64,000 bases of DNA from Diabrotica undecimpunctata. Taxonomy: Eukaryota; Arthropoda; Insecta; Coleoptera; Chrysomelidae. The position numbers and the translations under genes were made by a program. The stretch lies in the NCBI RefSeq assembly GCF_040954645.1, contig NC_092808.1, positions 81,843,389-81,907,388 of the forward strand, in the 5' to 3' direction. This document shows positions 29,184 to 52,192 of the stretch, piece after piece; the first letter of the stretch is position 1, and the number at the start of each line of letters is the position of its first letter. The notes under the pieces were generated by a model. It saw only the letters and a list, made by a program, of their open reading frames with translations. It searched no databases and was not told the DNA's origin.

Positions 29184-31172
29184 ATGGATAAAACGGTTGA
29201 TGATATTGTTAAAGTAAAAGATGATCTTGTTAAGGCAAGAGGTTGAAGTAAAGCTTCGATAACTAGATTGGAGAATTGGTTTAAAGAAAATGAAAAAAGT
29301 AATATTTCAAAAAATGAACTAATTTTTAGAAAAGACTATCTATCAAAAGTTTTTGACAAATATCTCGAGGTTCAAAATGAATTAGAGACAATAGATGATG
29401 AATTTTCTGTTGACATGGCAGACGTAGAAGACAGATTTTTAACGTTAGGATCAGCTCTAAAGAATAAAATTGATACAATTTCAGTAAATTCTGTTGTGAG
29501 CACCTCAGCTCAACAAAATCATTCAAATAACCATCATATCCGCCTACCGGAAATAAAAATTCCACATTTCGATGGAAATATAGCAAATTGGCCTAGTTTT
29601 ATCGAGATTTTTACCAAACTTGTCGTAGATGATTTAAATCTTTCAGATATTGAAAAACTAATTTATTTAAAATCAATTCTCAAGAACGAGCCTCTACAAC
29701 TAATTGAAAATTTGGAAGTTGTAGGCTCAAATTTTTCCGTTGCGCTCAATACACTTAAGAATAGATTTGAAAACAAATGTTTAATAATTAACACTTATTT
29801 AAAACAACTTTTGAACGTTCCTTCATTAACAAAAAATACTGCTCAAAACTTGCGAGAATTCTTAACTCACATAAAAAAGAATTTAAGTGCGCTAAATAAT
29901 TTAAATATCTCCGACAATCTTGCAGATTTAATTTTAATTCATATATTTACACAAAAATTAGATTTTAATATGAAACGATCCTTTGAATCCGAAAGAGATT
30001 TCAACGAACTTCCTACAATAGATGAGTTTTTGAATTTTATTGAAAAGAAATGTAAGATATTGGAAAATTTGATCTTTGAAGAAAAAACAGTTTATAAATC
30101 AAAACCGTCTCTTCATATTTCTATAACTAATGGAGATACATCTTTTAAATGTTTCGTATGCAATTCTATCTCACATAAAGTATACTCTTGCCAACAATTT
30201 TTAAATTTGTCCGCTCAAGAGCGTATGCAAAAAGTAAAAAACAAATGTTTTTGTCTCAATTGCCTTGCTAGTGGTCATATGTCTAATTCTTGTTCCTCAT
30301 CTTCGAATTGCAAAACCTGCAATAAGAGACATCACTCTTTGCTTCACATTTCACACCCGTCGGAAAATATTTCACGGCAAAGTTCGTATAGATCGAATTC
30401 TGAAAGTCAACCCGCCCAAAATCAATTTGTTCGGAATTCACGTCATCAACGTCCAAATCAGCATTCGTCTCAATTCACTTCGGAGAATATTCATGCAAAT
30501 TCGCAGAACAACTCTGTTCCAAATGCAATTCCGCAAGGTTCACCAGATACGCAAAATCTTCCAGGGCCGAGCAATATTTCGTCCCACTCTGTATATTCGA
30601 ACAATCTGCAAATTTTACTCGCAACTGCTTTGGTAACTGTTTACGATGTTGAAAACAATCCCATCTCTGTTCTTTGTTTAACAGACTCCGGTAGCCAAGT
30701 TTCGTTCATAACAGACAGGTTAGCCAAAAGAATTTGTTATTCACCCTATACCAGAAATCTTCAAATATCAGGTATAGCTCAAACTTCTTCTGTTTCAAAC
30801 AAGATGGTAGACCTTAAAATCTATTCAAACACATATCCTGGTAAAAACTTTAATCTGTCCTGTGCTGTCCTCGAAAGCATTACGTGCCAGCATCCACAAG
30901 TCGCGCTGGATTTAAATTTATTAAAAATACCAAAAAATATAAAACTTGCAGACCCACATTTCTGTACCCCGTCGGACGTAGACATGCTTTTAGGAGCTGA
31001 TATTTATTTTGACCTAGTTACTTACGGCTTAATAAAATTAGGCCCCAACCTTCCTATTCTTCAAAACACTCATTTGGGTTATATTGTAGGTGGAAATATC
31101 CCATACTCTCGTTATACAATGTTAGGATCAAACGCGACTCCTTCAAAGAACAATGCTCACTCACATTATTGA
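29184..31172 (+). pseudogene. Bel/Pao Gag and aspartic protease, one internal stop
   Basis: An ATG at 29184 opens the frame; a TGA at 29244-29246 interrupts it after 20 codons, and it then stays open to a TGA at 31170. Domains: Gag core with LPEIKIPHFDGNIANWPSF (from ~29550), two cysteine-rich knuckle clusters (CFVCNSISHKVYSC near 30160 and CFCLNCLASGHMSNSC near 30250), a Gln/Ser-rich linker, and a protease with LTDSGSQVSFI near 30680 and LLGADIYFDLV. Gag assembles particles and the protease processes them. The terminal TGA is in the same frame as the downstream RT, so it is a mutation rather than a natural gag-pol boundary. Confidence 0.88.
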
Positions 31173-32247
31173 AATATTTCGTTACACGTACAAACTGCTG
31201 ATCTTGATTCTCTTTTAAAGAATTTTTGGGAAATAGAAGAGACTAAACCACTCACTTCTATTCATGTAAAAACATTAACTCCCTCAGAACAGCGAGCTGA
31301 GGACATATTCAAATCTTCACTAACAATTCTTCTAACAGATTTCACAGATTCTAACAGATTTCAAGTAGACCTACCTCTGAAGACTCCTAATGAATATCAA
31401 AAATTAGGTGAATCATTTCATTTGGCAAAAAGACGTTTTTTCAAGCTTGAAAAAAGGCTTACCAAATCAGACGAGTTACGGCATCTGTACACAGAATTCA
31501 TATCAGAATATGTTTCTTTAGGGCATTGTAAATACGTTCCCCTTTCTAAGCTTAATGAATCGTCCGAACATAAGTTTTTTCTCCCACATCATTGTGTTTT
31601 CAAGCATGATAGCTTAACTACTCGACTCAGGGTTGTATTTGATGGATCAATGAAATCAACCTCAAATGTGTCTCTCAAACGATATTATGCTCAAACGTTA
31701 CACTGTACAACCTGATTTGTTTGAAATTCTAATTCGCTTTAGACTTTACAAATATACTCTTATCGCCGACATCGAAAAGATGTTTAGGCAAATAAGAATT
31801 AACCCAAAACAGACATTTCTACTAAACATTCTGTGGCGCAATTCCCCGCAAGAAAAATTAAAATGTTTAGAACTTCAGACTGTGACCTACGGCACAAACT
31901 CAGCTAGTTTTTTAAGTACTAGGTGTCTTAAAGAGTTGGCAGTTCGAAATAAAGAAAAATACCCATTAGCTGCTGATGCTCTAGAAAATTCTTGTTATGT
32001 AGATGATATTTTACATGGTGCAAATGATATCGAGACTTTGTACAAGACTTATAAGCAACTTTCTACGAGTCTAAATTCCGCTGGGATACCACTCCATAAA
32101 TGGAGTTCTAATTCTTCCGAGTTTCTCGACTCTATTTCCTCTAAATCTCAAAAATCTAATTATGTAATAAAACCCGACAATTCGTCAAATAAAGTTCTTG
32201 GAATATGTTGGAATTCTCAGCATGACATGTTCTATCTCTCTTCCTGA
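31173..32247 (+). pseudogene. Bel/Pao reverse transcriptase
   Basis: Continues the Gag frame after the TGA at 31170. The lead-in includes QVDLPLKTP and LRVVFDGSMKSTS (the LRVVFDAS motif of Pao RT). A frameshift near 31665 moves to the frame containing YTLIADIEKMFRQIRINP (first catalytic Asp), TVTYGTNSASFLSTRCL and CYVDDILHG, the YVDD active site. The catalytic residues are intact. After SSNKVLGICWNSQHDMF the frame ends at 32247 and the sequence jumps directly to the pre-integrase region. Confidence 0.87.
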
Positions 32248-33562
32248 CATTTCTAGTGAACCAAAATACACAATTATAGACGCATCTGATTTAATAAGAG
32301 TTGGTGGACGACTTCGCAATGCAAATGTTTCGTATAATCAAAAATTTCCACTTCTTCTTCCTACAAAATGCCAGGTAGTTAGATCGTTACTTGAAAGAGA
32401 ACACATTCGCCTATTGCACACAGGCCCTCAAAATACATTGTCAAATATTAGACTCACTTATTGGCCTCTTGATGGACTGAGAGAAATCAAGAGGATCATC
32501 TACAAATGTAAGAACTGTTACAGATTTAACGCAAGACCAGCTCATCAAATAATGGCCGATCTACCCAAAGAACGGTTTCAGGTCTCTCGACCATTCACAA
32601 ATGTTGGCATCGACTACGGGGGCCCATTTCAAATAAAATCTTCAAAACTGCGACGTGCTCCCATTTGTAAGGCTTATATAGCAGTATTCGTATGCCTCGT
32701 CACTAAGGCAGTCCATATAGAGCTAGTGTCCAGTCTTAGCACCGAAGCATTCCTACTAACGTTAAAAAGATTCATTTCACGCAGAGGTATTCCTAAAACC
32801 ATTTATTCGGACAATGCGTCCAACTTTCTTGGAGCTCGTAATCAGTTAAAAGAGCTTTATGACTTTTTTATGGGAACGGATATTCTACCTACCATAAAAG
32901 AATTCGCAGCCTCAACATTAATTGAGTGGAAGTTCATTGCACCTCGATCTCCACATCAGGGTGGATTTTGGGAAGCAGCTATAAAGAGCTGCAAGTATCA
33001 TTTAGTAAGGATGATGGGCAATAATATTTTTACATTTGAGGAATTAACCACTGTTTTGGCTCAAATAGAAGCTGTTTTAAATTCACGACCCCTCTGTCCA
33101 TTGTCAGACAGTCCAAATGATTTTTCTTTTCTAACCCCCGCTCATTTTCTCATTGGAAGCAGCATGACTTCCTATCCAGAAAAAGATATCTCGACAAAAT
33201 CCGAAAATAGTTTATCACTGTGGCAGAAATGCAGCAAAATTCAGCAGCATTTCTGGAAATGTTGGTCTAGAGATTATTTAAATCGCCTCCAAAATAAGCC
33301 CAAATGGTTTCTGCCCCAAGAAAACATTAAAGTCGATGATCTTGTACTCCTAATCGATGATAACGCTCCTCCTCTAAAATGGCCACTGGCAAGAGTAATC
33401 GAAACACTGCCAAGTAAAGACGGCAGGGTTAGAACTGTAAAACTAAGAACTAAAGACGGAACATTTATAAGATCTGTTGTTAAAGTATGTCCTTTACCCC
33501 ATACTCATTTAGATGTAGGTCACATCAACGGGGGGACTATGTTGCGTAACAACAATACTTAA
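32240..33562 (+). pseudogene. Bel/Pao integrase, joined to RT by a deletion
   Basis: The frame opens near 32240 right at the RT end. DLIRVGGRLRNANV is the block preceding integrase. The zinc-binding part is HIRLLHTG and CKNCYRF. The catalytic core shows VGIDYGGPF (D), TIYSDNASNFLGA (D) and GGFWEAAIKSCK (E), so the DDE triad is complete. C-terminal motifs (LWQKCSKIQQHFWKCWSRDYL, VLLIDDNAPPLKWPLARV) are normal for Pao. The stop at 33562 lies 23 bp inside the 3' LTR. What is missing is the RNase H and connection region, normally several hundred residues between RT and this point. Confidence 0.88.
33528..33539 (+). promoter_or_regulatory. polypurine tract of Bel/Pao element
   Basis: A G-rich acggggggacta run ends at the 3' LTR start and overlaps the end of the pol frame. 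Confidence 0.55.
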
Positions 33563-35557: not shown

Positions 35558-37516
35558 TAGACGAATTAGAGTCCGCATATCAGTTATGCCCAAAAAATGA
35601 TATAAAAATAGTCTATGGAGACCTAAACGCCAAAGTTGGAAAGAACAGCAATTCCAAGCCACAATAGGTAGGCACAGTCTCCATGGGCAATCAAATGACA
35701 ATGGCAATAGGTTAATAAACCTAGCAAACTTAACATAGTGATTACCAGCACTTACTTCGCTCGCAAAGATATACACAAAGGTACCTAGAAATCCCCGGAT
35801 GGACTTACAGTAAATATGATAGACCATGTCATTGTAGACTCGAGACACCAATCGAATATAATAAACGTCCGCACCAGAAGAGGGGCAAATGCGGATTCTG
35901 ATCACTACCTGGTCGAAAGTAGGATAAGGGATAGAATTTCAAACATCAAAAAGGAAAGAGGCTCTAAACATGAACGATACAAGGTAGAAGGACTCAAAGA
36001 AACAAACAAAAATAAGGAGTATTAAGAAAAGATAAACAATAAACTAAAAAACAGAATAACACATGAAAACCTAAATAAGGAGTGGGAAGAATGCAGAGAC
36101 CTCATAAAAGGGGCAGCTAAAGAAGTACTAGGCATAGAATGTAGAGAAAGAAGAACAAGAACGAATGACTGGTTTGACGAAGAATGTCAGATCATAACAG
36201 ACAAAAAAAAACAGCGCATTTTTACTGATGCAACAGGGGCACAGAACCCGACAAGTAGAGGAAGAATATAAACGACTACGCAAAGAAGAAAAGAAAACTC
36301 GCCAAAGAAAAAAGAGAGAATATATGAACAATGAACTTCAAGAACTACAAGAACTAAGTAAATCAACAGAGACAAGAAAATTTTATCAGAGGCTGAACAA
36401 AAGCAGAAAAGACTTCATCCGAGAACAACGATGTGTAGAGATAAGGAAGGTAATATATTGACAGAACAGCAAGAGATACTAAGTAGATGGACAGAACATT
36501 TTACGGAAAAGTTTGAAGGAGATCGGAGAGAGACGAATCCTGACATACCATTAGACCAAGCAGGCAACAGAGAAAAGACTCCACCAACAATATCCGAGAT
36601 TAGAGCAGCAGTAGACAAATTAAAGAACAATAAAGCACCGGGATCGGATCAAATAGCATCGAAATTACTGAAGGAAGGAGAAGACGCACTACAAAAAACA
36701 ATACATGAATTGATAACAAAGATATGGTCGAATAAACAGCTACTAGCGGATTGGAATAGCGGTATTATTGTACTATTACATAAAAAAGGCAATCAGTTAG
36801 AATGTGGAAACTACCGTGGAATCACTCTGCTGAATGCAGCATACAAAATAATGTCCAACGTCATTGATGAAAGACTTAGACCACACGCTGAAAAAATAGT
36901 TGGCAAATACCAAAGTGGCTTCTGTAGACAGAAGTCAACAATAGACCAAATATTTGTTCTGCGACAGATCCTCGAAAAAACAAGTGAATATAACATCGAT
37001 ACACATCATCTCTTCATAGACTTTGAAAGCGCAAATGACAATATAAACCGAGAATTCTTAATAAAAGCAATGAAAGAATTTAATATACCAACACAACTAA
37101 TAGAACTGATAAAAGAATCTCTAAAACTAGAAAGTAGAATCCGAATACAAAATGAATTAAAGGAAACAATAGATGTGAAAAAGCATCTTGTTCAACATCG
37201 TACTCGAGAAAATACTGACGGACACAACAGTCAATACACGAGGAACAATCATTAATAAAAGCGTGCAAATACTAGCATTTGCAGATGATGTTGACATAAT
37301 CGCAAGATCAAGAGGAGAAATGATAGAGGCATACAACCAAATAGAACGAGCTGCACAAAATAGTGGTCTTAAAATCAAGCAGACCAAAATAAAATATATG
37401 CAGGTAAGTAGAAACGCAGAAATAAGGCAGCCACAAAATATAACAATAGGAGAATACAACATAGAGGGGGTAAAAAACTTTATATACTTGGGATCCCTAG
37501 TCACGTCTGATAATAA
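35558..37516 (+). pseudogene. non-LTR endonuclease (3' part) and RT, upstream of gypsy B
   Basis: Endonuclease remnants come first: [14 protein letters not shown] near 35605, then [18 protein letters not shown] and [11 protein letters not shown] (the final SDH motif) at 35816-35910. The RT frame 36431-37255 has NKAPGSDQIASKLL, LECGNYRGITLLNAAYKI, YQSGFCRQKSTIDQIF and HLFIDFESANDNI (the AYD position is altered). A frame change near 37180 leads to 37188-37529, with LAFADDVDII (catalytic Asp pair) and KNFIYLGSLV. The frame runs straight into the gypsy LTR at 37517 and resumes at 43691. Several frame breaks make it inactive. Confidence 0.83.
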
Positions 37517-37787
37517 TGTAACGAAATAGCCCATCTCCGATACGTCATAATTCTTAGAAGGACGAATCTAGAAAACGTAAGAATCGGCATGTAAATAGCG
37601 CCCGTCCTTCGGACGGGAGACAATTAGAGGTGGTACAACGCCAGAATGTTCTCGAAAAGTAACTTTATTATATATATGTAACGTTGTTAGGAGTGAGTTT
37701 AGTTGATAAGAGAGTACCGAACTGTAAACTTATAAATAAATATATGTATATAAATTCGAACCGCTCGTTTTATTTAATCACGCTACA
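37517..37787 (+). repeat. 5' LTR of gypsy B
   Basis: 271 bp, tgtaacgaaatagccc... to ...cacgctaca. It holds a strong hairpin (37601-37617), a ttattatatatatg TATA-like run near 37667 and an aataaa near 37735. It differs from the 3' LTR at gtaaat/gtcaat and ggtggt/ggtggg. Confidence 0.95.
37601..37617 (+). other. LTR stem-loop
   Basis: cccgtccttcggacggg forms a perfect 7-bp GC-rich stem with a 3-nt loop. It is present unchanged in the other LTR at 43500-43516. Confidence 0.8.
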
Positions 37788-37933
37788 GTTGGTGTTACGG
37801 TGTGAGTAAAAAGAAATAAATTCAGCAGTGACTTTTGAAAAAGACTTTTGAACTTTTGAAAAGTACTGTTCGTCGGGAACATCCGCGTAGTTCGGTAGTG
37901 TCCTTTGTACGAAAGAACATTTAAAAAGTACGT

Positions 37934-39279
37934 GTGTGCCTGACCAAAGATGCTGCTAGTAAACTTTCAGTAAAACAGTTGCGTGAGCAACTGGAAGAAC
38001 GCGATGAAGATTGCAGCGGGTCCAAGAAGATACTCCAAGAACGACTGAAGACTGTTCTCAACAAGAATGGAGAAGACCCAGAGACATTCCAGTTCCAGTC
38101 AGCAGAACAAGCAGTTTTAATGAAGATCGAAGAGAGTTCCAGAAAAAAGATAAGAAATTTGAAAACGTCTCTCAAATGATAGAAGAATCTTCTCGAAAGA
38201 ATGATGAAAGATTCAATGAAACGTCTCAAATGATAGAAGAATCTTCTCGAAAGAATGACGAAAGATTCAATGAAACGTCTCAAATGATAGAAGAATCTTC
38301 TAAAAAAAATGATGATAAATTAGAGAACGTTTCCAAAAGATTCGATGAGAAATTCGAAAATGTATCTCGAAGATTCGACGAGAAATTTGAAAATGTTTCT
38401 CAAATAATGGAAGAAACTTCTAAAAAGAACAATGAAAAATTTGAAGAAGTTTCTAAAACATTTGATAAAGTAGAAGAGAAGATCAAACAGTTAGAGAGCA
38501 TGATAACTAATACAAAAGTGCTACCACCGGTTAATACAATAGCCTTAGATCCGGTAGTGAAAGAAGAATCACCTAGAGACGAAACGACACATAATATGAG
38601 ATTCAAATTGCCACCATTTGATGGAAAGTCCTCTTGGTCAATATACCTTAGACAATTTGAAGCTATTTCGATAGCCAATCATTGGACAGAACAAGAAAAA
38701 GCTGTTTCCTTGACTGCTGCTTTACGAGGTGATGCTGCAGATATCCTAAGATCGATTCCTTAGGGTCAAGAAAAATGTTACCAGACCTTGTTCACTCGAC
38801 TAGACAAACGTTATGGAGATGCCCATCTACAACAAGTCTACAAGGCGCAACTAAGAAGTAGAATTCAACGAGCAAGTGAAAATTTGCAAGAGTTTGAAGC
38901 AGATGTTGCTCGTATAGTGCGGTTGGCTTATCCGGAGGTACCAGATATTATTTTAGAAGAAATTGCTGTAGATACCTTCGTCAATGGGTTAAAAGAAAGT
39001 GAATTACAGAAAGCTTTACGACTAGCAAGACCGAAAGTTCTAGATGAAGCGCTCGCTATTGCCTTGGAACATGAAACAGCTAGTCAAACTTCACGGAGTC
39101 ATCGAGTAAGAACCATTGTAGAAGGCGACGAACCAAACGATGAACGTCTGGAAGAAATGGTACGAAAAGTAGTTCGCAACACGATGCCGAAGAGACGCGA
39201 GCCCAGATGTTGGAATTGCGGTGACGTAGGTCATATTCGCCGTAATTGCAAGAAAATGATACAACAGTCGGAAAACTAG
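37934..39279 (+). pseudogene. gypsy B Gag (SAP-like, coiled coil, CCHC)
   Basis: The N-terminal frame carries KLSVKQLREQLEERDEDCSG and KKILQERL, which fits a SAP nucleic-acid-binding motif. A frame change near 38140 leads to a charged coiled coil built from tandem copies of an 18-residue unit (QMIEESSRKNDERFNETS). Then comes the Gag core from KLPPFDGKSSWSIYLRQFEA, a TAG at 38761-38763, TRLDKRYGD onward, and a single CCHC knuckle CWNCGDVGHIRRNC near 39210. No ATG lies in the first frame; upstream it is closed by a stop at 37922, so the start is unclear. The end overlaps the protease frame by 34 nt in the -1 frame, as expected for ribosomal frameshifting. Confidence 0.83.
38173..38401 (+). repeat. 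54-bp and 33-bp tandem repeats in gag
   Basis: Three 54-bp units begin at 38173, 38227 and 38281 (caaatgatagaagaatcttc). They are followed by two shorter 33-bp units (agattcgatgagaaattcga type) from about 38338. Both encode coiled-coil heptads, so copy number can vary without frame change. Confidence 0.85.
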
Positions 39280-39839
39280 AACGGGTCGACAACAAGGGGC
39301 AACTGCCGACCTCGAGAAACACAGCCCCCATAGTAACTGTGAACATTACGTCCTCAGGTGGAATTCATAGCTTGTACATAGAGGGTCGTATCAATAATAA
39401 ATGTAGATCGTTTTTGGTAGATACAGGTGCAACGAGAACTATTGCACGGCCAGAAGTAGTACGAGGCCATCTTAAATTATTGCCTGCAACAGTAAAGCTT
39501 AGAACAGCAACTGGTGAGATAATTAATACATATGGCGAGGCTAATATGTCAGTATCCATTGGCCAGACCACAGTGAAACATACAGTATTAATTGCAGAGA
39601 TCTCCGATGAGTTCATATTGGGGATGGATTTACTAAGGAAAGTTGGGGCTGTATTGAATGTCAAAGATGGAGTTCTCGAGATCAGTGGTGAAGAGTTGCC
39701 GTTTCATGAAGACAAAGAAGATGTTATCAGCTTAATAACTACTTGTGACGTAACAATAGTTCCTAACGGCAAAAGCTTTGGTGAGAATTCGAGATGTCGT
39801 CCCTGTAAGAGTTATGAATTTAAAGGGAAATGCTATTAA
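39246..39839 (+). pseudogene. gypsy B aspartic protease
   Basis: The frame overlaps the 3' end of gag (-1). The retropepsin site FLVDTGATRTI is near 39415, and the second conserved block EFILGMDLLRKVGAVL is near 39615. The frame then breaks near 39777 and similarity continues in the next frame. The protease domain itself (~110 residues) is complete and has its catalytic Asp. It would cleave the Gag-Pol precursor inside particles. Confidence 0.87.
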
Positions 39840-41169
39840 GTTAAGTAAAAGAACTTTGATCGGACAGTGTGTTCCCGTGGCTTCGATTTGTTCCATGAAT
39901 ACTAATGAGAAACCGTCGAAATCTAAGTATCCAAAGGAGCTTGTTGAGAAGATGATTTAAACGTGCCAAGACCTTGATGATGAACGAACAAAAAAAGTGA
40001 AGTCTATGCTGATAGAATTTCAAGATGTTTTTGCCATGGATAAGAAAGATAATGGCAAAACAAGCATAGTAAAGCATAAAATTAATAACGGAGACGCTCA
40101 GCCAATCAGACATCAACCTAGACGACTTCCATTTGCGAAAAGAGATGAAGCCGAAGACATCATCAAAGATATGAACAAACAAGGGGTAATTGAACCATCA
40201 AATAGTCCATGGACATCACCAGTAGTGCTAGTAAAGAAGAAAGATGGTTCAACACGTTTTTGTATTGACTACCGACAGCTCAATGCAGTAACTAAAAAAG
40301 ATAGTTATCCTTTGCCCAGAATAGACGATACTTTGGATACACTTTCTGGTTCTCGTTGGTTCTCTACAGTCGATCTGAAAAGTGGATATTGGCAAGTAGA
40401 CATGGAGCCAGCTGATCGTGAAAAAACCGCATTCTCGATAGGATCAGGGCTTTGGCAGTTTACAGTTATGCCCTTTGGTTTATGTAATGCCCCGGCCACA
40501 TTTGAAAGATTAATGGAGGCAGTTTTAAGAGGTCTAACATGGAAAACATGCCTGGTTTATTTGGATGATGTAATTGTGGTTGGAAGATCCTTCGATGAAC
40601 ATGCCAATAATCTGACAGAAGTTTTTCAACGATTGAGGGCAGCGAATTTAAAGTTAAGTCCAAAGAAATGTCACTTGTTTCGACGAGAAGTGAAGTACTT
40701 GGGACATATTGTAGCAAGTAATGGTGTAACAGCTGATCCTGAAAAACTTTCAGCAATTAAGGATTGGCCTGTACCAAGAAATAAACACGAAATTAGAAGT
40801 TTTCTTGGCCTATGTACATATTACCGACGTTTTGTCAAAGGATTTGCCAACATCTCCAAGCCATTAACAAAGTTGACAGAAGAAGGCAAAGAATATACAT
40901 GGAGCGAAGAGTGTCAAAGAGCTTTCGAAAACTTACAAATGGCTCTAACCAGCGCACCGATTTTAAGCTACCCTAGACAGGCAGGAAAATTTGTGTTGGA
41001 CACCGATGCAAGCAACAGTGCAATAGGAGCTGTTCTCTCACAAATCCAAGATGGACAGGAGAAAGTCATCGCTTACTTTAGCAAAGTCTTGTCAAAACCA
41101 GAAAGAAACTATTGCGTTACTAGGAGAGAATTGCTAGGCGTAGTAAAGGCCTTGCGCGCATTTCCATAA
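39778..41169 (+). pseudogene. gypsy B reverse transcriptase and start of RNase H
   Basis: One frame from 39778 is interrupted by a TAA at 39958-39960, then open from 39961 to 41169. RT blocks are textbook gypsy: SPVVLVKKKDGSTRFCIDYR, YPLPRIDDTLDTLSG, FSTVDLKSGYWQVDM (Asp), FGLCNAPATFERLM and LVYLDDVIVV (YLDD active site). Then come VKYLGHIVASNGV, RSFLGLCTYYRRFV, and the RNase H start FVLDTDASNSAIGAVLSQ with RRELLGVVKAL. A frameshift near 41163 splits RNase H. The catalytic residues of RT are all present. Confidence 0.92.
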
Positions 41170-41173
41170 ATAC

Positions 41174-42931
41174 TTGTATGGCAGAAAGTTTCTTCTTCGC
41201 ACGGATCACGCTGCTCTAAAATGGCTTCTACAATTCCGTAATCCAGAGGGCCAGATGGCAAGATGGTTAGAACGATTGCAAGAATATGATTACGAGATCG
41301 AACACAGGGCTGGCAGAGTTCATTCAAATGCTGATGCCCTTTCGAGACGGCCGTGCAGTGCAAACTGTAATTACTGTCTTAAATTAGAAGAACGACTTTG
41401 CCCCGTGAGACGAACCACCGTCATTAATGATCAATGGCAGCCTCAACAGCTACAAGACGCTCAAGCAGATGATCCATGTATAAAAAGAGTATTGGATTGG
41501 ATGCGTCGAAGTGAAAGACCTTCTTGGCAAGACATTAGTGCATGTAGTCCAGAAGTCAAGTGTTACTGGAGCCAATGGAATTGTCTAGTGCTGAAAGATG
41601 ATCTTCTGTATAGAACCTTTGAGAACGATGATGGTACAGAAACTAAGCTTCAGTTGATTGTACCTAAAAGTAAAGTGTCAGAAGTTTTGCGTCAGTTGCA
41701 TGACGGTACATCAGGTGGACACTTTGGTATTACGAAGACTCTGCAAAAGGTTCGAGAACGGTTCTATTGGGTGAACTGTAAAGATGATGCAAGAAGATGG
41801 TGCCGGAAATGTGAACTGTGTGCAACCAGTAATGGTCCAGTTGGTAAAAAGAGGGCACCCATGAAACAGTACAATGTTGGTAGTCCTATGGAAAGAGTAG
41901 CAATCGACATTGCAGGTCCACTTCCAGAGACGAATGATGGAAATAAATATATCCTGGTAGCCATGGATTATTTTACGAAATGGACTGAGGCCTATGCGAT
42001 ACCAAATCAAGAAGCTGCTACCGTTGCAGAGGTACTGGTTAAAGAATTCTTTAGCCGATTCGGTGTTCCGTTGGAGATCCACTCAGACCAAGGGCGAAAC
42101 TTCGAGTCAAACCTTTTCCAAAACGTTTGTAAATTGATTGGTGTCAATAAGACCAGAACGACACCCCTGCATCCTCAATCAGATGGAATGGTCGAGAGAA
42201 TGAACCGAACAATGGGTAAACACCTGTCCAAGGTTGTATCAGAACATCAAAGAGATTGGGACCAGCATATTCATTTATTCCTAATGGCCTACCGCTCGGC
42301 CGTGAATGAAACTACAGGCCAGACTCCAACCTGCCTGATGTTAGGTCGTGAAGTTCGTTTGCCCTGCGACCTAGAGTTTGGCTGCAGACCTTCCGAAGAA
42401 CATGTTGCAAGCGAAGATTATGTCGACCGCCTGAAGTTAAGAATGAACAACATTCATGAACTTGCCCGACAACACATCCAGATAGCCAGTGACAGAATGA
42501 AAGATCAATATGATTCTCGATGTAAGAGTGAAAGCTATGAAGTAGGTGATCTTGTTTGGCTTTATAATCCACAACGTCGTCGAGGCTTGTCTCCCAAACT
42601 GCAAAGACAATGGGAAGGTCCATATGAAATTAAAAAGAAAATAAATGACGTAATATTCCGAATTAAGAAGTTGCCGAAAGGTAAACCAAAAGTAGTTCAC
42701 ATAAATCGTCTTGCACCATATGCTGGCTCAAATGAAACAGAAGAAGCACGAACCCTTCAACATGAGATCAAAGATGACCGGCGACCAAGCTTTAATGAAT
42801 TTATGTCAAATTACGCAGAGAGAAAGAGTGCTAGATTCGGCGTGACCACAGAAGTTCAGCAGGATCTTTTTAGTGTTCCGCATAACGTCTCTCTAGCCCA
42901 CTGTCATGTGTTGCCCAAGATCTTGAGATGA
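41174..42931 (+). CDS. gypsy B RNase H end, integrase and start of macro domain
   Basis: 585 codons. The RNase H end comes first (LLRTDHAALKWLL, SNADALSRR). The integrase zinc-binding domain is near residues 175-215 (HDGTSGGHFG...CRKCELC). The DDE core has VAIDIAGPL, IHSDQGRNFES and SDGMVERMNRTM, so the triad is complete. A GPY/F-like end (WEGPYEIKKKINDVIFRIK) follows near residue 490. After a ~45-residue linker the last ~20 residues (DLFSVPHNVSLAHC) match the first strand and loop of a Poa1p/OARD1-type macro domain. The stop at 42929-42931 overlaps the ATG of the next frame (ATGA). The frame changes within the preceding ~25 nt, next to a tgt-ca-tgt repeat. Confidence 0.88.
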   Translation: MYGRKFLLRTDHAALKWLLQFRNPEGQMARWLERLQEYDYEIEHRAGRVHSNADALSRRPCSANCNYCLKLEERLCPVRRTTVINDQWQPQQLQDAQADDPCIKRVLDWMRRSERPSWQDISACSPEVKCYWSQWNCLVLKDDLLYRTFENDDGTETKLQLIVPKSKVSEVLRQLHDGTSGGHFGITKTLQKVRERFYWVNCKDDARRWCRKCELCATSNGPVGKKRAPMKQYNVGSPMERVAIDIAGPLPETNDGNKYILVAMDYFTKWTEAYAIPNQEAATVAEVLVKEFFSRFGVPLEIHSDQGRNFESNLFQNVCKLIGVNKTRTTPLHPQSDGMVERMNRTMGKHLSKVVSEHQRDWDQHIHLFLMAYRSAVNETTGQTPTCLMLGREVRLPCDLEFGCRPSEEHVASEDYVDRLKLRMNNIHELARQHIQIASDRMKDQYDSRCKSESYEVGDLVWLYNPQRRRGLSPKLQRQWEGPYEIKKKINDVIFRIKKLPKGKPKVVHINRLAPYAGSNETEEARTLQHEIKDDRRPSFNEFMSNYAERKSARFGVTTEVQQDLFSVPHNVSLAHCHVLPKILR

Positions 42932-43404
42932 CTAACGGAATCTCATCCGTATTTTATAAGAAATTCGGTCGTTTGGACGAGTTAAAAAACCAGCAACCTA
43001 AAGTTGGAAGAGTACTGAGATCAGAAGATGGTTCTCGATCTTTGCTGTATATGGTGACCAGGAAGTCGTATAAAGACAGGGCAAGCTACGAGGATATATG
43101 GCGTGCTCTAACTAATTTGAAGAGAATTGTGTGCAATTACGACATCAAGAATTTGGCCTTACCCAAGATAGGCCATGCACTAGATAATCTGGACTGGAAG
43201 ATTGTCAGAAGCATGCTTGAAGTGATCTTCCGAGAAACCGGCGTACGAATTACTGTGTGTTGCATTAACCCGATGAGATCGTATCCTTTAAAGTCAGTAG
43301 ACTGTTATTTCTTTCTAAAGGGTTCATGCAGAGCTGGAGAGTCCTGTAGATTCCGCCATCTTGTGCCTACATATAGAGTTGCTGATCGGGACGATCAGAT
43401 TTAA
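42928..43404 (+). CDS. gypsy B macro domain (OARD1/TARG1-like) and CCCH zinc finger
   Basis: 158 residues. Residues 3-112 follow the Poa1p/OARD1 macro fold: NGISSVFYKKFGRLDELK, the PKVG turn, LLYMVTRKSYKDRASYEDIW, LALPKIGHALDNLDW and a final ITV strand. From memory of human OARD1, the nucleophilic lysine position (TK-K) is Arg45 here, while the catalytic aspartate (GxGLD) is kept as Asp86. Residues 126-144 form C-x7-C-x5-C-x3-H, a CCCH RNA-binding finger. Macro domains bind or remove ADP-ribose; CCCH fingers bind RNA. It occupies the env position, ends 11 nt before the LTR and overlaps pol by ATGA. Known: the domain families. Inferred: a role against host ADP-ribosylation or in RNA binding. 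Translation could be by reinitiation; more likely it is the C-terminus of an ancestral Pol fusion. Confidence 0.85.
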   Translation: MTNGISSVFYKKFGRLDELKNQQPKVGRVLRSEDGSRSLLYMVTRKSYKDRASYEDIWRALTNLKRIVCNYDIKNLALPKIGHALDNLDWKIVRSMLEVIFRETGVRITVCCINPMRSYPLKSVDCYFFLKGSCRAGESCRFRHLVPTYRVADRDDQI

Positions 43405-43415
43405 GAGGGGAGCAG
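43403..43415 (+). promoter_or_regulatory. polypurine tract of gypsy B
   Basis: aagaggggagcag directly before the 3' LTR; the plus-strand primer site. Confidence 0.7.
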
Positions 43416-43686
43416 TGTAACGAAATAGCCCATCTCCGATACGTCATAATTCTTAGAAGGACGAATCTAGAAAACGTAAGAATCGGCATGTCAATAGCGC
43501 CCGTCCTTCGGACGGGAGACAATTAGAGGTGGGACAACGCCAGAATGTTCTCGAAAAGTAACTTTATTATATATATGTAACGTTGTTAGGAGTGAGTTTA
43601 GTTGATAAGAGAGTACCGAACTGTAAACTTATAAATAAATATATGTATATAAATTCGAACCGCTCGTTTTATTTAATCACGCTACA
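43416..43686 (+). repeat. 3' LTR of gypsy B
   Basis: 271 bp, two differences from the 5' LTR, same hairpin and ends; followed by ataa. Confidence 0.95.
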
Positions 43687-43690
43687 ATAA

Positions 43691-44255
43691 CGTTACGACG
43701 GAAGTGAAAAGGCGAATATTGATTGCAAATAAATGTTACCATGGCTTAATTAGGCAATTAGTATCAGATAACGTCGCAAGAAAAACAAAATGCCAAATAT
43801 ATAAAACCCTAATAAGACCGGTACTCACATACGGCTCAGAAACCTGGACCCTCACTAAAAGAGAGGAAACGTTGTTAGCCACCTTCAAAAGAAAAATCTT
43901 GCGACACATATATAAGGGCACAAAAGAAAACGGAATATGGCGAAGAAGAAACAACTCTGAACTATACAAAATATACCAGGATCCGGATATTATAACATTC
44001 ATTAAAATAGGACGGCTGCGTTGGATAGGACATGTAGAAAGAATGGAAGAAGGCGAAAGACCAAACAAAATCTTCAAACAGATGCCAGTAGGAAAAAGAA
44101 CAAGAGGAAGACCGAAACTGAGATACTTAGAACAAATAGAAAATGATATAACAACCTTAAAAATAAAAAACTGGAGAAAAAAAGCACGAAACAGATCAGA
44201 ATGGAGAAGAATCCTGGAACAGGCCAAGACCCAAAAAGGGTTGTCGAGCCAGTGA
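43691..44255 (+). pseudogene. non-LTR RT C-terminal part, downstream of gypsy B
   Basis: Continues the RT frame interrupted at 37516. It reads EVKRRILIANKCYHGL, KTLIRPVLTYGSETW, LLATFKRKILRHIYK, RLRWIGHVERM and GRPKLRYLEQIENDI, ending in a stop at 44253-44255 followed by the (gat)n tail. This is the thumb and C-terminal tail of an endonuclease-RT type element. 183 codons are intact from 43704. Confidence 0.88.
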
Positions 44256-44284
44256 TGATGATGATGATGATATTCTAATTTAGT

Positions 44285-45569
44285 AGAAGAATAGTCATCA
44301 TTTGCAATATTTGATACGTTATCTTTAGTTCAGCCTCAAAAAAAGGAAGGTATATTTTTTGTCTAATAAAGTTCTAACGCTATCTGTACAATCATCTATG
44401 AAGATAATACCATCAGCGAATCAGTTAATTTTCTTTGTTTTTTTGTATTTTTAGTATTTTATTATGTTCTCCAAGGGTCCGCCAAAAATTCTTAAGATAT
44501 TTTGTTTTTTTTTGTGTTACTTGTCGTTGTATATCAATTATATTATATTTGGTTTCTCTGTCCATTCGTTTGGAAAAATACAGCGTTTTGGTACATGTAT
44601 TTTATCATCTTTGTATATCGGTTATGTAGGCGATATTTATTTAGCCCTGTTAGTTAAAAAAACTGTTGTCAAAAATCATTTCGTGATCTTCAAATATTTT
44701 ACAACTTTTTCCCTGGATGGGTGAAGTCTATCTTAGTTTTTAATTTCTTGGTTAATTTTTGTTATAATAAGTATGTAGATAGCTACTAGTATGTAGTATG
44801 TAGATTACTGGTTTATGGTTTCAATATGTCTGCTGGCTGTATTAACGATTTTTATTATATTATTGTTTATTTCTCTACATAATTTTCAAAATACATAAAA
44901 AAACACTATGCTTAAACATATTTTATATCAATGTACGAGATATGATGACAACCTTATTGAAGTTCGAGCTGCAATCAATATTACTGAACACTTAATTACA
45001 CCAAGTACATGATGGGCTTTATCGCATTACCAACAGCAATCTGAGTGAGAATAATTATGGCGAAATGTTTTGTCCTTTACGTTAGAGATTTTGTTATTGC
45101 CTGTACAATACGTATTCAACTTCCTCTTAATCAGGCAATGATCAGCAACTAAATACTCTTTAGATAGAAATTAATAATTTAAATTGGCAATATTTAGCTC
45201 AAAGTGCACCAAGTATTGTTAATTCGCCTTTACGAATTTTTTTGAATATCAAGTTAATTTCTTAACAGAATATTCTTATTTTAATTTATTTTTGTGTATT
45301 GATATGTTATTACATTTATTATTATTATTATATAAATCATTCTGTCAGATAATTTTATTGGATAACCCATTTGTTAATGTATTGTTAAATATATTACAAA
45401 TGTTAATATAAAATTTGTAATAATATAATATACAACAAATTATTATTACGATTAGATTAGATTAGTTAGATTCTAAAAATTAAAGGCCCATTAACTGACT
45501 GAACCACTTATAAAAATTCTTTACTTTGATACTGGCAAACAGATTGTGAGTATAACTTGATTTCTACCA
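44285..45569. other. no clear gene; possible non-LTR tail trace
   Basis: AT-rich. Near 44910-45010 a frame reading HILYQCTRYDDNLIEVR weakly resembles the cysteine-histidine tail of a Jockey-like ORF2. A gatta-type repeat occurs near 45453-45470. Nothing firm. Confidence 0.35.
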
Positions 45570-45735: not shown

Positions 45736-46954
45736 CTACGGTCGGCGTTCCGCGCATGAGCGCTGGTTACCTACATTTCTTGTCTGCCATTGCCATTGCA
45801 GTCTGATTCTTCATTGTATACTTGTTTACTCCAGTGTTTAAGATGCCTCCAACAATCGTGAGTCACGCTGATTGTGAAGTACGGGATGTTATACGATTTC
45901 TTAGTGTTAAAGGCGTAAAACCGATCGATATTCATTGTGAGATCGTTGAAGTTTACGGACAAAACATTATGAGTGATGGAATGGTAAGGAAATGGATGAG
46001 AGCATTTATTAAAGATGGCCGCACAAATGTGCATGATGAAGAACGGAGTAGGCGTCCTTCGGTCGTTAATGAAAATTTGGTGCAGAAAGTGGACGAAAAA
46101 GTGGACGCGTTTGTATCGCATTGTTACCGAGAACTTGAATTACCGGAAATTGTGTTCACGTTGGGTTCCAAACGGATGGGACGGATTTGCACAAATCCCA
46201 ACGTTTAGGCAGTGCATTGACTTTCCTTGAGCGGTACCACAGTGAAGGTGAAGATTTTTTAGACCAAATTGTTACTGGTGACGAAACGTGGGTGGCCTAC
46301 GTCACACCAGAATCGAAACAACAATCCATGGAATGGCGACATTCATCATCACCCAAAAGAGTGAAGTTTAAGCAAACAATTTCTGCCCGGAAAATCATGT
46401 GCACAGTTTTTTGGGGCAGAAAAAGAGTATTTAGTGGAGTTCCTGCCTCGTAATGAGACAATCAATGCAGCGTCTTATTGTGAGACATTGAAAAATCTGC
46501 GTCGTGCAATCCAGAACAAAAGACGTGGCAAGTTGAGTAAGGGTATCGTTTTGCTGCATGACAATGCCCGTCCACATGTGGCTAATCAGACTAAAGATCT
46601 CATCAAATCATTTAAATGGGAAACTCTAGGTCATCCTCCATACAGCCCTGATCTGGCGCCCAGCGACTACCATTTGTTCCAGCACTTGAAGAAACACCTG
46701 GGCGGTCAGCGTCTTTAAGACGATAACGAAGTCAAAACATTTGTGATGCAGTGGTTAACAAGTCAGGCGGCAGAATTTTATCAGGAGGGTATTCAAAAAC
46801 TGGTGCCACGTTATGACAAGTGCCTCAATATTCACGGAAATTATGTAAAAAAGTAGATTAAGGTACAGGCTTTCATGTAAAAATAAAATTATTGCTATAT
46901 CTTTGCACGTCTTTTTTTAATCTTAAAACGGTACTTTCCAAAACACGCCTCGTA
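45736..46954 (+). mobile_element. mariner-family DNA transposon, damaged
   Basis: The right terminal repeat (about 46929-46954, reverse complement tacgaggcgtgttttgg) is typical of mariner and is followed by TA. The left terminal repeat is not found: the recognisable element starts with a tcggcgttccgcgc leader at about 45742, so the left end appears truncated. It carries a broken transposase. Confidence 0.82.
45843..46856 (+). pseudogene. mariner transposase
   Basis: ATG at 45843, stop at 46854. The N-terminal DNA-binding part is VRDVIRFLSVKGVKPIDIH to SRRPS. After a scrambled stretch with frame changes (46100-46210), the frame LGSALTFLERYHSEGEDFL leads to VTGDETWV (first catalytic Asp). HDNARPHVANQ (second Asp) and YSPDLAPSDYHLF follow, with 34 residues between the second and third Asp, the D34D signature of mariner. 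The last part (EFYQEGIQKLVPRYDKCL) follows a TAA near 46717. Length is near the usual ~345 residues minus a small N-terminal loss. Inactive. Confidence 0.88.
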
Positions 46955-50639: not shown

Positions 50640-52192
50640 ATGACTTCACACAATGTAAACACACCTTCCGATCTAACCAGTCCAGTAAATCAACGTTCGA
50701 ATATCACAAACAGTTATGCTTCAGCCGCTTCACATTCTTTTCAGAGTAAGAACCAAGCAATTGTATTTAGTTGTATCGATAATGCTAAACTGCAGGATTA
50801 TCTCATTCCTTTGAGTACAATCATCAACCAAAAAATATTATTTTTTCATCTAGATTATCTCATAATAGAATCTGCATGTACTTGGCAAACAAAACCGTAG
50901 TAGATAATTTCATGACACAATATGACTCTATAGAAGTACTCGGCGAAGTTGTAACAGCACGAAGACTTGTCTCTCCAGCAGAAAGACTAGTCTTGTCTGG
51001 AGTCTGCCCGTCAATTCCTCATCAAGTATTAGTTGAAGAATTACAGAATATCGGTTTAAAGCTTATTTCCCCAATAACATTTCTGAAAATTAGCTCGACT
51101 CTTCCCGAATATAGTCACATATTGAGCTTTCGGAGGCAAGTTTATATAAGCCCTATAACATCACCAATTCCAGATTCTATTCTAATAAATTTCGACCAAA
51201 CACCTTACCGCATATTTTTGTCACAAGGTACACTCACCTGCTTTATTTGCAAAAATACAGGACACATATCATCCCACTGCAAAACCAGTTCAGTAACGGA
51301 ATCAACACATATTGAGTCAAACAATGAAGTATCAAATCAAACAGCTTTAACAAGTATACTACACAAGGTACCAAACACCCAGCAGTCATCAAGTTATCCA
51401 TTATCAAATCCGAGCATATCACCTATACCTACAAATCTCCACGACAAAGAAACTACTAATACTCCTACTCATAGCAACACTTTTAATCAACCTCATTCAG
51501 CGGCAATACCGTTTTCACAAACTTCGGAAGCAACATTTTCCAATCTATCAGCTCCTTTTCCATTAGATACAACTGCAGAAAATTCTAATAAAACTGATAC
51601 ATCACCACAATTTTTTGAAACAACCAATTCAGTACCTCCAGTACTTCCAAATGTAATAAAGCCACACCATCTAAGTGAAAACTCTAATAGCAATTGCGAA
51701 AACATAAGTTCTTCCATAAAACGCAGTATTGGTGAGATCGACACGCCTCCTTCAGATTCAGCAATTTCATCAGAAAATCTGTTTGCAAAACCCAAACTCT
51801 CTAAACCAAAAAAACCGCGCTCATCTAAAGTTCAATCTACACGGGAAACTCTTGAAAATTTCATTGATAATCATACCCCACCATTCGTTTTAAATTTCCA
51901 CCAATTGTCTTTACTGATTGATAATGTCCAAGGCTCCCCCGACACTATTAGCGTCGTTAAAGAATTTACAACTGATATGGTTGGTTTACTCCGTCTTTTA
52001 CAAAGCAGCTATCAATATGCAAATGATAGATCTACAAAAAGCAAGTTTACAAAACTTCAAAAGAAACTATACACCCACTTAGGGAAAGAGATTTCTGACT
52101 TAGATAGTGACTCTTCTGTAGACAATCGTTCAGTATCATCTAACTCCGAATCTGTTAACAACATTCAACTCGATACTTCAATGGAACATTGA
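50640..52192 (+). pseudogene. I-like ORF1 (Gag-like, CCHC), one frameshift
   Basis: ATG at 50640 after a 300-nt leader. A frame change near 50860 separates the first ~75 codons from the second frame, open to 52192. The second frame has an RRM-like core (RLVLSGVCPSIPHQVLVEEL) and a single CCHC knuckle CFICKNTGHISSHC near 51240. A long Ser/Thr/Pro/Asn-rich linker and a C-terminal helical domain (VVKEFTTDMVGLLRLLQSSY) follow. This layout is that of RNA-binding ORF1 proteins of Jockey/I elements. Confidence 0.82.

What the first reader, a model, noticed from the sequence alone, without database searches (positions are those of the whole stretch)
42860..43404. Gypsy retrotransposon with a C-terminal macro domain plus CCCH zinc finger
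Seen: downstream of a complete integrase, and inside the LTRs, the coding sequence continues into a Poa1p/OARD1(TARG1)-like macro fold and then a C-x7-C-x5-C-x3-H finger, ending 11 nt before the 3' LTR. Known: macro domains bind or remove ADP-ribose; several RNA viruses use them against host antiviral PARPs, and CCCH fingers occur in antiviral PARPs (PARP7/12/13). Inference: the element captured a host ADP-ribosyl hydrolase or reader and an RNA-binding finger, perhaps to blunt ADP-ribosylation-based silencing or damage signalling at integration, or to tether element RNA. I do not know of a described LTR element with this layout, but I cannot search.
Basis: partly seen in the sequence, partly recalled or inferred. 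Interest (0 to 1): 0.9.

Follow-up and report, generated by a model that had tools for sequence, protein, structure and literature searches.

The report
Insect jumping gene carrying ADP-ribose module
A very abundant beetle retrotransposon ends its integrase polyprotein with a captured ADP-ribose-handling (TARG1-like) domain and a small zinc finger, a layout shared by relatives in other insects and, for the main domain, kept by selection here, suggesting that the element uses or defeats ADP-ribose signalling when it copies itself.

Summary
Confirmed, and not private to this copy. The window (by inference Diabrotica undecimpunctata) holds a Ty3/Gypsy-type element (LTRs 37517-37787 and 43416-43686, 2 differences in 271 nt, TSD ATAA). 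After integrase come a TARG1/OARD1-type macro domain and a CCCH finger, ending 11 nt before the 3' LTR. In this copy the frame shifts inside the macro domain (about 42905); other copies read through. A 24-base macro signature occurs 903 times in the genome. Integrase, macro and CCCH also lie together on proteins from D. virgifera, Harmonia, a record filed under Erysiphe pulchra and an unnamed metagenome. The element macros form one group (99/97). The TARG1 Lys84/Asp125 pair is present in 59 of 59 non-Diabrotica rows compared (18 element-labelled, 41 others) but altered in both Diabrotica families: family A (this one) has Lys84->Arg, family B keeps Lys and lacks Asp125. In family A the macro domain is under purifying selection; for the finger this was not shown. 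Best reading: an integrase-linked module in the chromodomain's place, ancestrally a hydrolase, in Diabrotica a non-hydrolysing binder. Mechanism is inferred. No description was seen in my literature searches.

The parts
37513..37516 (.). target site duplication ATAA (5' side)
   Evidence: matches 43687-43690
37517..37787 (+). 5' LTR, TG...CA, 271 nt
37790..37806 (+). candidate primer binding site TGG... just inside the 5' LTR (tRNA not identified)
   Evidence: sequence reading; inferred
38011..38763 (+). gag N-terminal part with coiled coil and repeated units
   Evidence: no Pfam hit above cut-off
38788..39279 (+). gag capsid/nucleocapsid part (zf-CCHC above cut-off, Ty3_capsid below cut-off)
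39246..39839 (+). aspartic protease
   Evidence: gag-asp_proteas E 2.2e-11, RVP
39997..41169 (+). reverse transcriptase and start of RNase H
   Evidence: RVT_1 5.3e-40, RT_RNaseH_2 1.2e-30
41174..42829 (+). end of RNase H, integrase (H2C2, rve, p58 C-terminal; motif WEGPYE read as GPY/F) and linker
   Evidence: GPY/F reading by eye, module described in PMC2774666 passages
42830..42904 (+). N-terminal part of the macro domain, in the integrase frame (the frame shifts after this in the window copy)
42907..43260 (+). rest of the macro domain (TARG1/OARD1 type), in the frame of 42928-43404
43291..43359 (+). CCCH zinc finger C-x7-C-x5-C-x3-H
   Evidence: PF00642 above cut-off
43402..43404 (+). stop codon of the macro-CCCH frame
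43403..43412 (+). polypurine tract AAGAGGGGAG, overlapping the stop codon
   Evidence: sequence reading; inferred
43416..43686 (+). 3' LTR
43687..43690 (.). target site duplication ATAA (3' side)

Best explanation
What it is (shown): a Ty3/Gypsy-type LTR retrotransposon lineage of insects whose Pol protein carries, after the integrase C-terminal (GPY/F) region and a linker of about 37 residues, a TARG1/OARD1-type macro domain (best explained by one capture, probably from an insect gene), then a CCCH finger, ending in Diabrotica right at the polypurine tract and 3' LTR. How it works (inferred): the module acts while fused to integrase, in the place where chromoviruses have a chromodomain. The macro domain binds ADP-ribose, or an ADP-ribosylated protein or nucleic-acid end, at the integration site or on the pre-integration complex; the finger grips nucleic acid. 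In the other lineages seen the Lys84/Asp125 pair is kept, so the module could also remove ADP-ribose. In Diabrotica it has become a non-hydrolysing binder (family A: Lys84->Arg; family B: Asp125 lost) that is still kept by selection in family A.
For: Order integrase-macro-CCCH on one protein: P0006, P0007, P0008, P0009; integrase C-terminus plus macro: P0012 (by motif) and P0021 (PF22938). One group of 24 element-labelled rows, 99/97. Fold equals TARG1, 0.8 A. Lys84 and Asp125 in 59 of 59 non-Diabrotica rows of A3, 18 of them element-labelled; Arg84 in 4 of 4 Diabrotica rows. Exact patterns in the genome: 903 Arg against 8 Lys. Family B: Lys84 in 37 of 37, shortened Asp125 loop in 37 of 37 (gap against TARG1). 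Selection on the macro in 60 family A copies: singletons N190:S66 (omega 0.94), variants in 3 or more copies N33:S33 (0.33), in 6 or more N6:S17 (0.12); Fisher p 2.8e-4 and 6e-6. Position parallel with the chromodomain: PMC2774666 passages.
Against: No binding, localisation or integration data. It is unknown whether the element protease cuts the module off integrase. In family B the AHC motif and the second pocket loop are changed too, so ADP-ribose binding may be lost there. Selection on tail+CCCH alone is not significant (N54:S15 singletons vs N25:S11 shared, p 0.35). Three stop-making variants in the macro are shared by 3 or more copies. Lack of the Lys/Asp pair does not prove inactivity: SCO6735 hydrolyses without it (PMC9411070 passages). 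Only proteins with both integrase and finger prove the layout outside this genome: 4.
Confidence: 0.5

Rival explanations
1. Counter-defence eraser: the module removes ADP-ribose that host PARPs put on element proteins, RNA/cDNA ends or chromatin, as viral macro domains do; the finger brings it to element RNA.
For: Lys84/Asp125 kept in 18 of 18 element-labelled non-Diabrotica rows. TARG1 acts on protein mono-ADP-ribose and on nucleic-acid ends (PMC7050489 passages). TARG1-like folds in insect-associated viruses; best BFVD match is Kadipiro virus VP8, 38% identity.
Against: The pair is altered in both abundant Diabrotica families, so hydrolysis by the TARG1 mechanism is not needed for spread there. 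But SCO6735, an ALC1-like hydrolase, works without it (PMC9411070 passages), so activity is not excluded.
Confidence: 0.25
2. RNA-side function: macro-CCCH is a C-terminal nucleic-acid binding piece (packaging, 3'-end processing or cDNA handling), with the macro fold as scaffold or nucleotide binder.
For: CCCH residues kept in family B (each Cys 37 of 37, His 35 of 37, a biased sample); best solved match of the finger is CPSF30/CPSF4, which I recall as a poly(A)-signal reader. The two Diabrotica families change the ADP-ribose site in different ways but keep the domain and the finger.
Against: A single finger of 23 residues gives little specificity; the element already has a CCHC knuckle in gag. 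Selection on the finger itself not shown.
Confidence: 0.2
3. Hitch-hiking host fragment without function for the element.
For: Loss of catalytic residues; long stem branches of both Diabrotica families (0.64 and 0.70); selection on the finger not shown.
Against: Layout shared by Diabrotica, Harmonia and two other records, one group in the tree, purifying selection on the macro in family A, 903 pattern copies, open frames through to the stop near the LTR.
Confidence: 0.04

Closest known systems
TARG1/OARD1 (C6orf130), ALC1-like macro domain class
   Same: Sequence (E 1.6e-18) and fold (0.8 A); Lys84/Asp125 kept in the 18 element-labelled non-Diabrotica rows
   Different: Fused to retrotransposon integrase and a CCCH finger; catalytic pair altered in Diabrotica families A and B
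Chromoviruses (Ty3/Gypsy with a chromodomain after integrase)
   Same: Host-type module directly after the integrase GPY/F region at the end of Pol (PMC2774666 passages; PMC3605345, start of abstract in listing)
   Different: No chromodomain among Pfam hits; macro plus CCCH instead; targeting not shown
Teleost epsilon-like endogenous retroviruses with extra macro-domain ORFs (Basta et al. 2009)
   Same: LTR element with a macro domain (seen only as a sentence in PMC4977317; the original was not read)
   Different: Fish retrovirus, described there as an additional open reading frame; here a C-terminal part of Pol in insect Gypsy elements, with a finger
Macro domains of insect-associated RNA viruses (for example Kadipiro virus VP8)
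   Same: TARG1-like fold and 38% identity
   Different: Not LTR elements; other context
CPSF30/CPSF4 CCCH fingers
   Same: Best solved-structure match of the finger (E 1.3e-6)
   Different: One finger only, in another protein

Membership tests
Ty3/Gypsy LTR retrotransposon | LTRs with TG...CA and short target site duplication | tested here: met
Ty3/Gypsy LTR retrotransposon | Order PR-RT-RNaseH-IN | tested here: met
Ty3/Gypsy LTR retrotransposon | RT placed within Ty3/Gypsy by a tree | not tested
   no RT tree was made; the clade is unassigned, and BEL/Pao (same gene order) was set aside by domain types only
Chromovirus | Chromodomain after integrase | tested here: not met
   no chromodomain among Pfam hits
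Errantivirus / endogenous retrovirus | env gene between integrase and 3' LTR | tested here: not met
   macro-CCCH ends 11 nt before the 3' LTR; no env-like Pfam hit in the frames scanned
TARG1/OARD1 macro domain | ALC1-like macro fold and sequence | tested here: met
   (the general Pfam Macro model stays below its cut-off)
TARG1/OARD1 macro domain | Lys84/Asp125 catalytic pair | tested here: not met
   Diabrotica family A Lys84->Arg; family B lacks Asp125. Met in 59 of 59 non-Diabrotica rows of A3
TARG1/OARD1 macro domain | ADP-ribose binding or hydrolysis | not testable with these tools
   needs purified protein
CCCH zinc finger | C-x(7-8)-C-x5-C-x3-H and PF00642 above its cut-off of 20.5 bits | tested here: met
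   window 25.9; family B 28.9; P0006 21.3, P0007 22.3, P0008 20.5; P0009 16.1 is below

The most novel reading that the evidence does not exclude
A whole insect lineage of Ty3/Gypsy elements uses ADP-ribosylation as a landmark: an integrase-linked macro domain, first a hydrolase and in Diabrotica a pure reader, guides or protects integration at PARP-marked chromatin or DNA ends, as a chromodomain does with histone methylation.
Probability: 0.3. Interest if true: 0.88.

Novelty: new variant of a known kind. Interest (0 to 1): 0.74.

Why it matters
It links LTR retrotransposon integration to ADP-ribose signalling. In the listings and passages of my ten searches the nearest precedent that I saw is one sentence on fish retroviruses. 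Two abundant families in one genome with the catalytic pair altered in different ways, beside relatives that keep it, make an eraser-or-reader question directly testable with small purified domains. It also shows that several insect proteins named 'ADP-ribose glycohydrolase OARD1-like' in public records group with transposon macro domains (P0002, P0003, P0021; P0021 also carries an integrase C-terminal domain).

Tried and rejected
Host-gene chimera private to this copy: rejected. Chance frame: rejected (E-values, fold, selection). Env or chromodomain at this place: no hit. IMG/VR scan for the layout: 112 stretches matched a pattern, none a relative by tblastn. Rfam on 37000-44500: no match. 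The first structure job with 4 rows was poor (pLDDT 52.3); the second with 63 rows was used (87.7). Host OARD1 of Diabrotica: a search with a Drosophila OARD1 gave one better-scoring place that is not this element, L021 (no Pfam hit); exons of a further OARD1 would be hidden under the element copies, so this is open. Whether families A and B lost the pair once or twice: the tree sets them apart, but one clade is not rejected (p-AU 0.297).

Not answered: count of Lys84 in family B; the Arg84 count, 3, was unanswered and answered. The integrase-anchored count did not complete. Searches were unanswered; the request of 33 was answered, that of 32 was not repeated.

Full report
OBSERVATION. The window copy has LTRs at 37517-37787 and 43416-43686 (271 nt, 2 mismatches, TG...CA) and the duplication ATAA on both sides; joining the flanks restores the reading frame of the LINE it landed in. 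Inside lie gag pieces, protease, RT, RNase H and integrase. The 158-residue frame 42928-43404 matches human TARG1 over residues 3-111 (E 1.6e-18) and has a CCCH finger at 122-144 (PF00642 25.9 bits, cut-off 20.5). The Pfam Macro model is below its cut-off here (15.0 vs 22) and for the whole domain of another copy (16.6). The N-terminal part of the macro domain is in the preceding integrase frame; the frame shifts at about 42905 in this copy. Gag, protease and Pol are also split over several frames in this copy. Stop to 3' LTR: 11 nt.

THE GENOME. G000 has 1.74 Gb; its contig C8 (145,884,717 bases) has the length of the contig that carries P0002, named Diabrotica undecimpunctata. The identification is an inference from that length.

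COPIES. A search with the 158 residues gave 5717 first-look candidates; 150 were scored and all 150 matched. Many of those rows lie in open frames of 1414 residues or more. An exact 24-base pattern around residue 84 gave 903 Arg matches (433+470) and 8 Lys matches, controls 0. I fetched 60 of the 100 places listed (58 on C1, 2 on C2): integrase C-terminus found in 52 of 60, N-terminal macro piece in 57, C-terminal macro piece in 60, CCCH in 55, all four in 47; one open frame from integrase into macro in at least 20 of 60. Among the best-scoring loci L002-L020, the 11 on the plus strand read in one frame from the integrase C-terminus to the stop after the finger; the minus-strand ones were not read in that call. 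The LTR start lies 56 nt after the finger in 21 of the 73 loci where the finger motif was found; the other 52 include the copies that I had cut about 3 nt past that point and were not sorted further. The sample is anchored on the macro, so it cannot say what share of integrase copies carry it; the integrase-anchored count did not complete.

A SECOND FAMILY. Of 83 loci (L021 left out) 46 aligned by blastn to family A; the other 37 are a second family, B, about 43% identical over integrase C-terminus, macro and CCCH. Family B keeps Lys84 (37 of 37) but has KLECRQLDW (33), KLECGQLDW (3) or KLDCRQLDW (1) where TARG1 has IGCGLDRLQW, so Asp125 is missing. Family A has Arg at 84 in 46 of 46, but 20 of these were chosen by the Arg pattern; of the 26 others, the window copy among them, all 26 have Arg84 and Asp125. 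Over the 46, position 125 is Asp 35, Glu 7, Ser 1, Tyr 1, unread 2. Among other Diabrotica proteins it is Glu in P0001, P0002, P0003, P0005, P0006 and Val in P0004. The family B loci came from a list of best matches to a Drosophila OARD1, so they are a biased sample.

OTHER SPECIES. Integrase, macro and CCCH on one protein: Diabrotica virgifera P0006, a record filed under the fungus Erysiphe pulchra P0007 (groups with Harmonia, 98/85, so probably insect DNA: inference), Harmonia axyridis P0008, an unnamed ENA record P0009. A profile search of the macro domain gave 355 proteins, 120 listed. Of the 126 proteins held, 9 show the CCCH pattern and 10 show a peptide such as LRRGQCN near the end; 8 are in both sets. 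For D. virgifera this peptide fits the polypurine tract plus LTR start TGTAAC as read in the window; for the rest that is inferred. Rows of the same group come from Brassicogethes (finger with one Cys lacking), Acanthoscelides (one of three with a finger), Pyrocoelia and Leptinotarsa (integrase C-terminus plus macro), Aromia, Callosobruchus and Aquatica, and two Hemiptera, Macrosteles and Nilaparvata; apart from Brassicogethes and Acanthoscelides their models show no complete finger. Several are named OARD1-like.

ORIGIN. Tree of 64 rows: 20 beetle-type element rows and 3 hemipteran rows lie in one group (100/93), with insect OARD1 on the same side of a branch (87/98, not starred). Tree of 67 rows with family B and L021 (P0003 left out): 24 element-labelled rows one group, 99/97; L021 and a metagenome protein P0027 are nearest, weakly (80/24); the join with insect OARD1 does not appear there. 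Labels: 15 of these 24 rows bear an integrase part, a finger or the LTR peptide, or belong to families A and B by other copies (L008, P0006 to P0012, P0014, P0017, P0021, P0023, P0032 and the two family B rows); P0002, P0013, P0015, P0016, P0018, P0019, P0020, P0038 and P0041 were labelled by likeness alone, so the grouping is partly built in for them. The root is not inferred. L021 is a gene of the same genome with a 683-residue ATG frame, Lys84 and Asp125 kept, no Pfam hit. One capture of an OARD1-type gene, probably insect, is best supported; the donor is open.

FOLD AND CATALYSIS. The model of 196 residues (63 rows, pLDDT 87.7) matches TARG1 4j5s at 0.8 A; viral best match Kadipiro virus VP8. 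In A3 (62 proteins picked out of the 126 held, plus L008) Lys84 and Asp125 are present in 59 of 59 non-Diabrotica rows, 18 element-labelled and 41 others; the 4 Diabrotica rows have Arg84, and Glu125 in 3. The pair and its role were read in passages of PMC7050489 (which prints Glu125) and PMC9411070 (Asp125); the primary paper PMC3642678 is not held. Residue numbers were laid on the element by the alignments; TARG1 numbering itself is from these passages and recall. Lack of the pair is not proof of inactivity: SCO6735 hydrolyses without it.

SELECTION. In 60 family A copies (the codons of the residue-84 pattern left out) singleton variants in the macro domain look neutral (N190:S66, omega 0.94, 14 stops), so do those in two copies (N57:S19, 0.98); variants in 3 or more copies do not (N33:S33, 0.33, with 3 shared stops; 6 or more: N6:S17, 0.12); Fisher p 2.8e-4 and 6e-6 against singletons. 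Tail+CCCH: 54:15 vs 25:11, p 0.35, not shown. Integrase C-terminal piece: 3 shared variants, too few. Family B: shared macro variants N7:S8 (0.35), but singletons are also low (0.56), as expected from how it was picked; CCCH shared N5:S2 (0.88). Copies are related, so variants are not fully independent.

MECHANISM. The module sits after the integrase GPY region, where chromoviruses have a chromodomain (PMC2774666 passages). I therefore favour an integrase-linked binder of ADP-ribose or ADP-ribosylated targets (0.5 for the whole statement; about 0.95 for the anatomy, 0.3 for targeting as such). Shown: layout, spread, state of the catalytic pair, selection on the macro of family A. Supported: single capture. 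Inferred: ligand, place of action, role of the finger.

LITERATURE. Ten searches in the held library. Only two papers hold both 'macro domain' and 'LTR retrotransposon'; one is the fish review with its sentence on macro-domain ORFs in fish retroviruses, the other, on LINE-1 and cocaine, was seen only in the listing. Passages were seen in PMC4977317, PMC4695847, PMC7050489, PMC9411070 and PMC2774666; all other papers only as listings. Repbase, Dfam and most subscription journals were not searchable.

Noticed in passing
window 13453-16343: Non-LTR retrotransposon frames (endonuclease-like and RT-like), judged by eye from the translation
   Followed up: no
window 29268-33562: BEL/Pao-like gag and integrase frames, judged by eye
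   Followed up: no
window 36431-37516 and 43691-44255: LINE (RVT_1 hit in 36431-37252) split by the Gypsy element; its frame is restored when the flanks are joined
   Followed up: yes
window 38153-38458: Gag coiled coil built of repeated units (78-nt reference copies spaced 54, 54, 87, 33 nt)
   Followed up: no
window 45822-46208: Mariner-like helix-turn-helix frame, judged by eye
   Followed up: no
window 50876-52192: LINE ORF1-like frame with a CCHC motif, judged by eye
   Followed up: no
L021 1036-3087: Beetle gene with a TARG1-like macro domain that keeps Lys84 and Asp125, behind a long low-complexity N-terminus and, by eye, before a degenerate macro-like stretch; no Pfam hit
   Followed up: partly
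P0007: Protein filed under the powdery mildew Erysiphe pulchra belongs to this insect element group; probably insect DNA in the fungal assembly
   Followed up: partly
P0047: Metagenome protein with an integrase H2C2 zinc domain in front of a TARG1-like macro domain; it falls outside the element group, so perhaps another capture
   Followed up: partly
P0002, P0003, P0021: Public proteins named ADP-ribose glycohydrolase OARD1-like that group with the retrotransposon macro domains (P0021 also carries an integrase C-terminal domain)
   Followed up: yes
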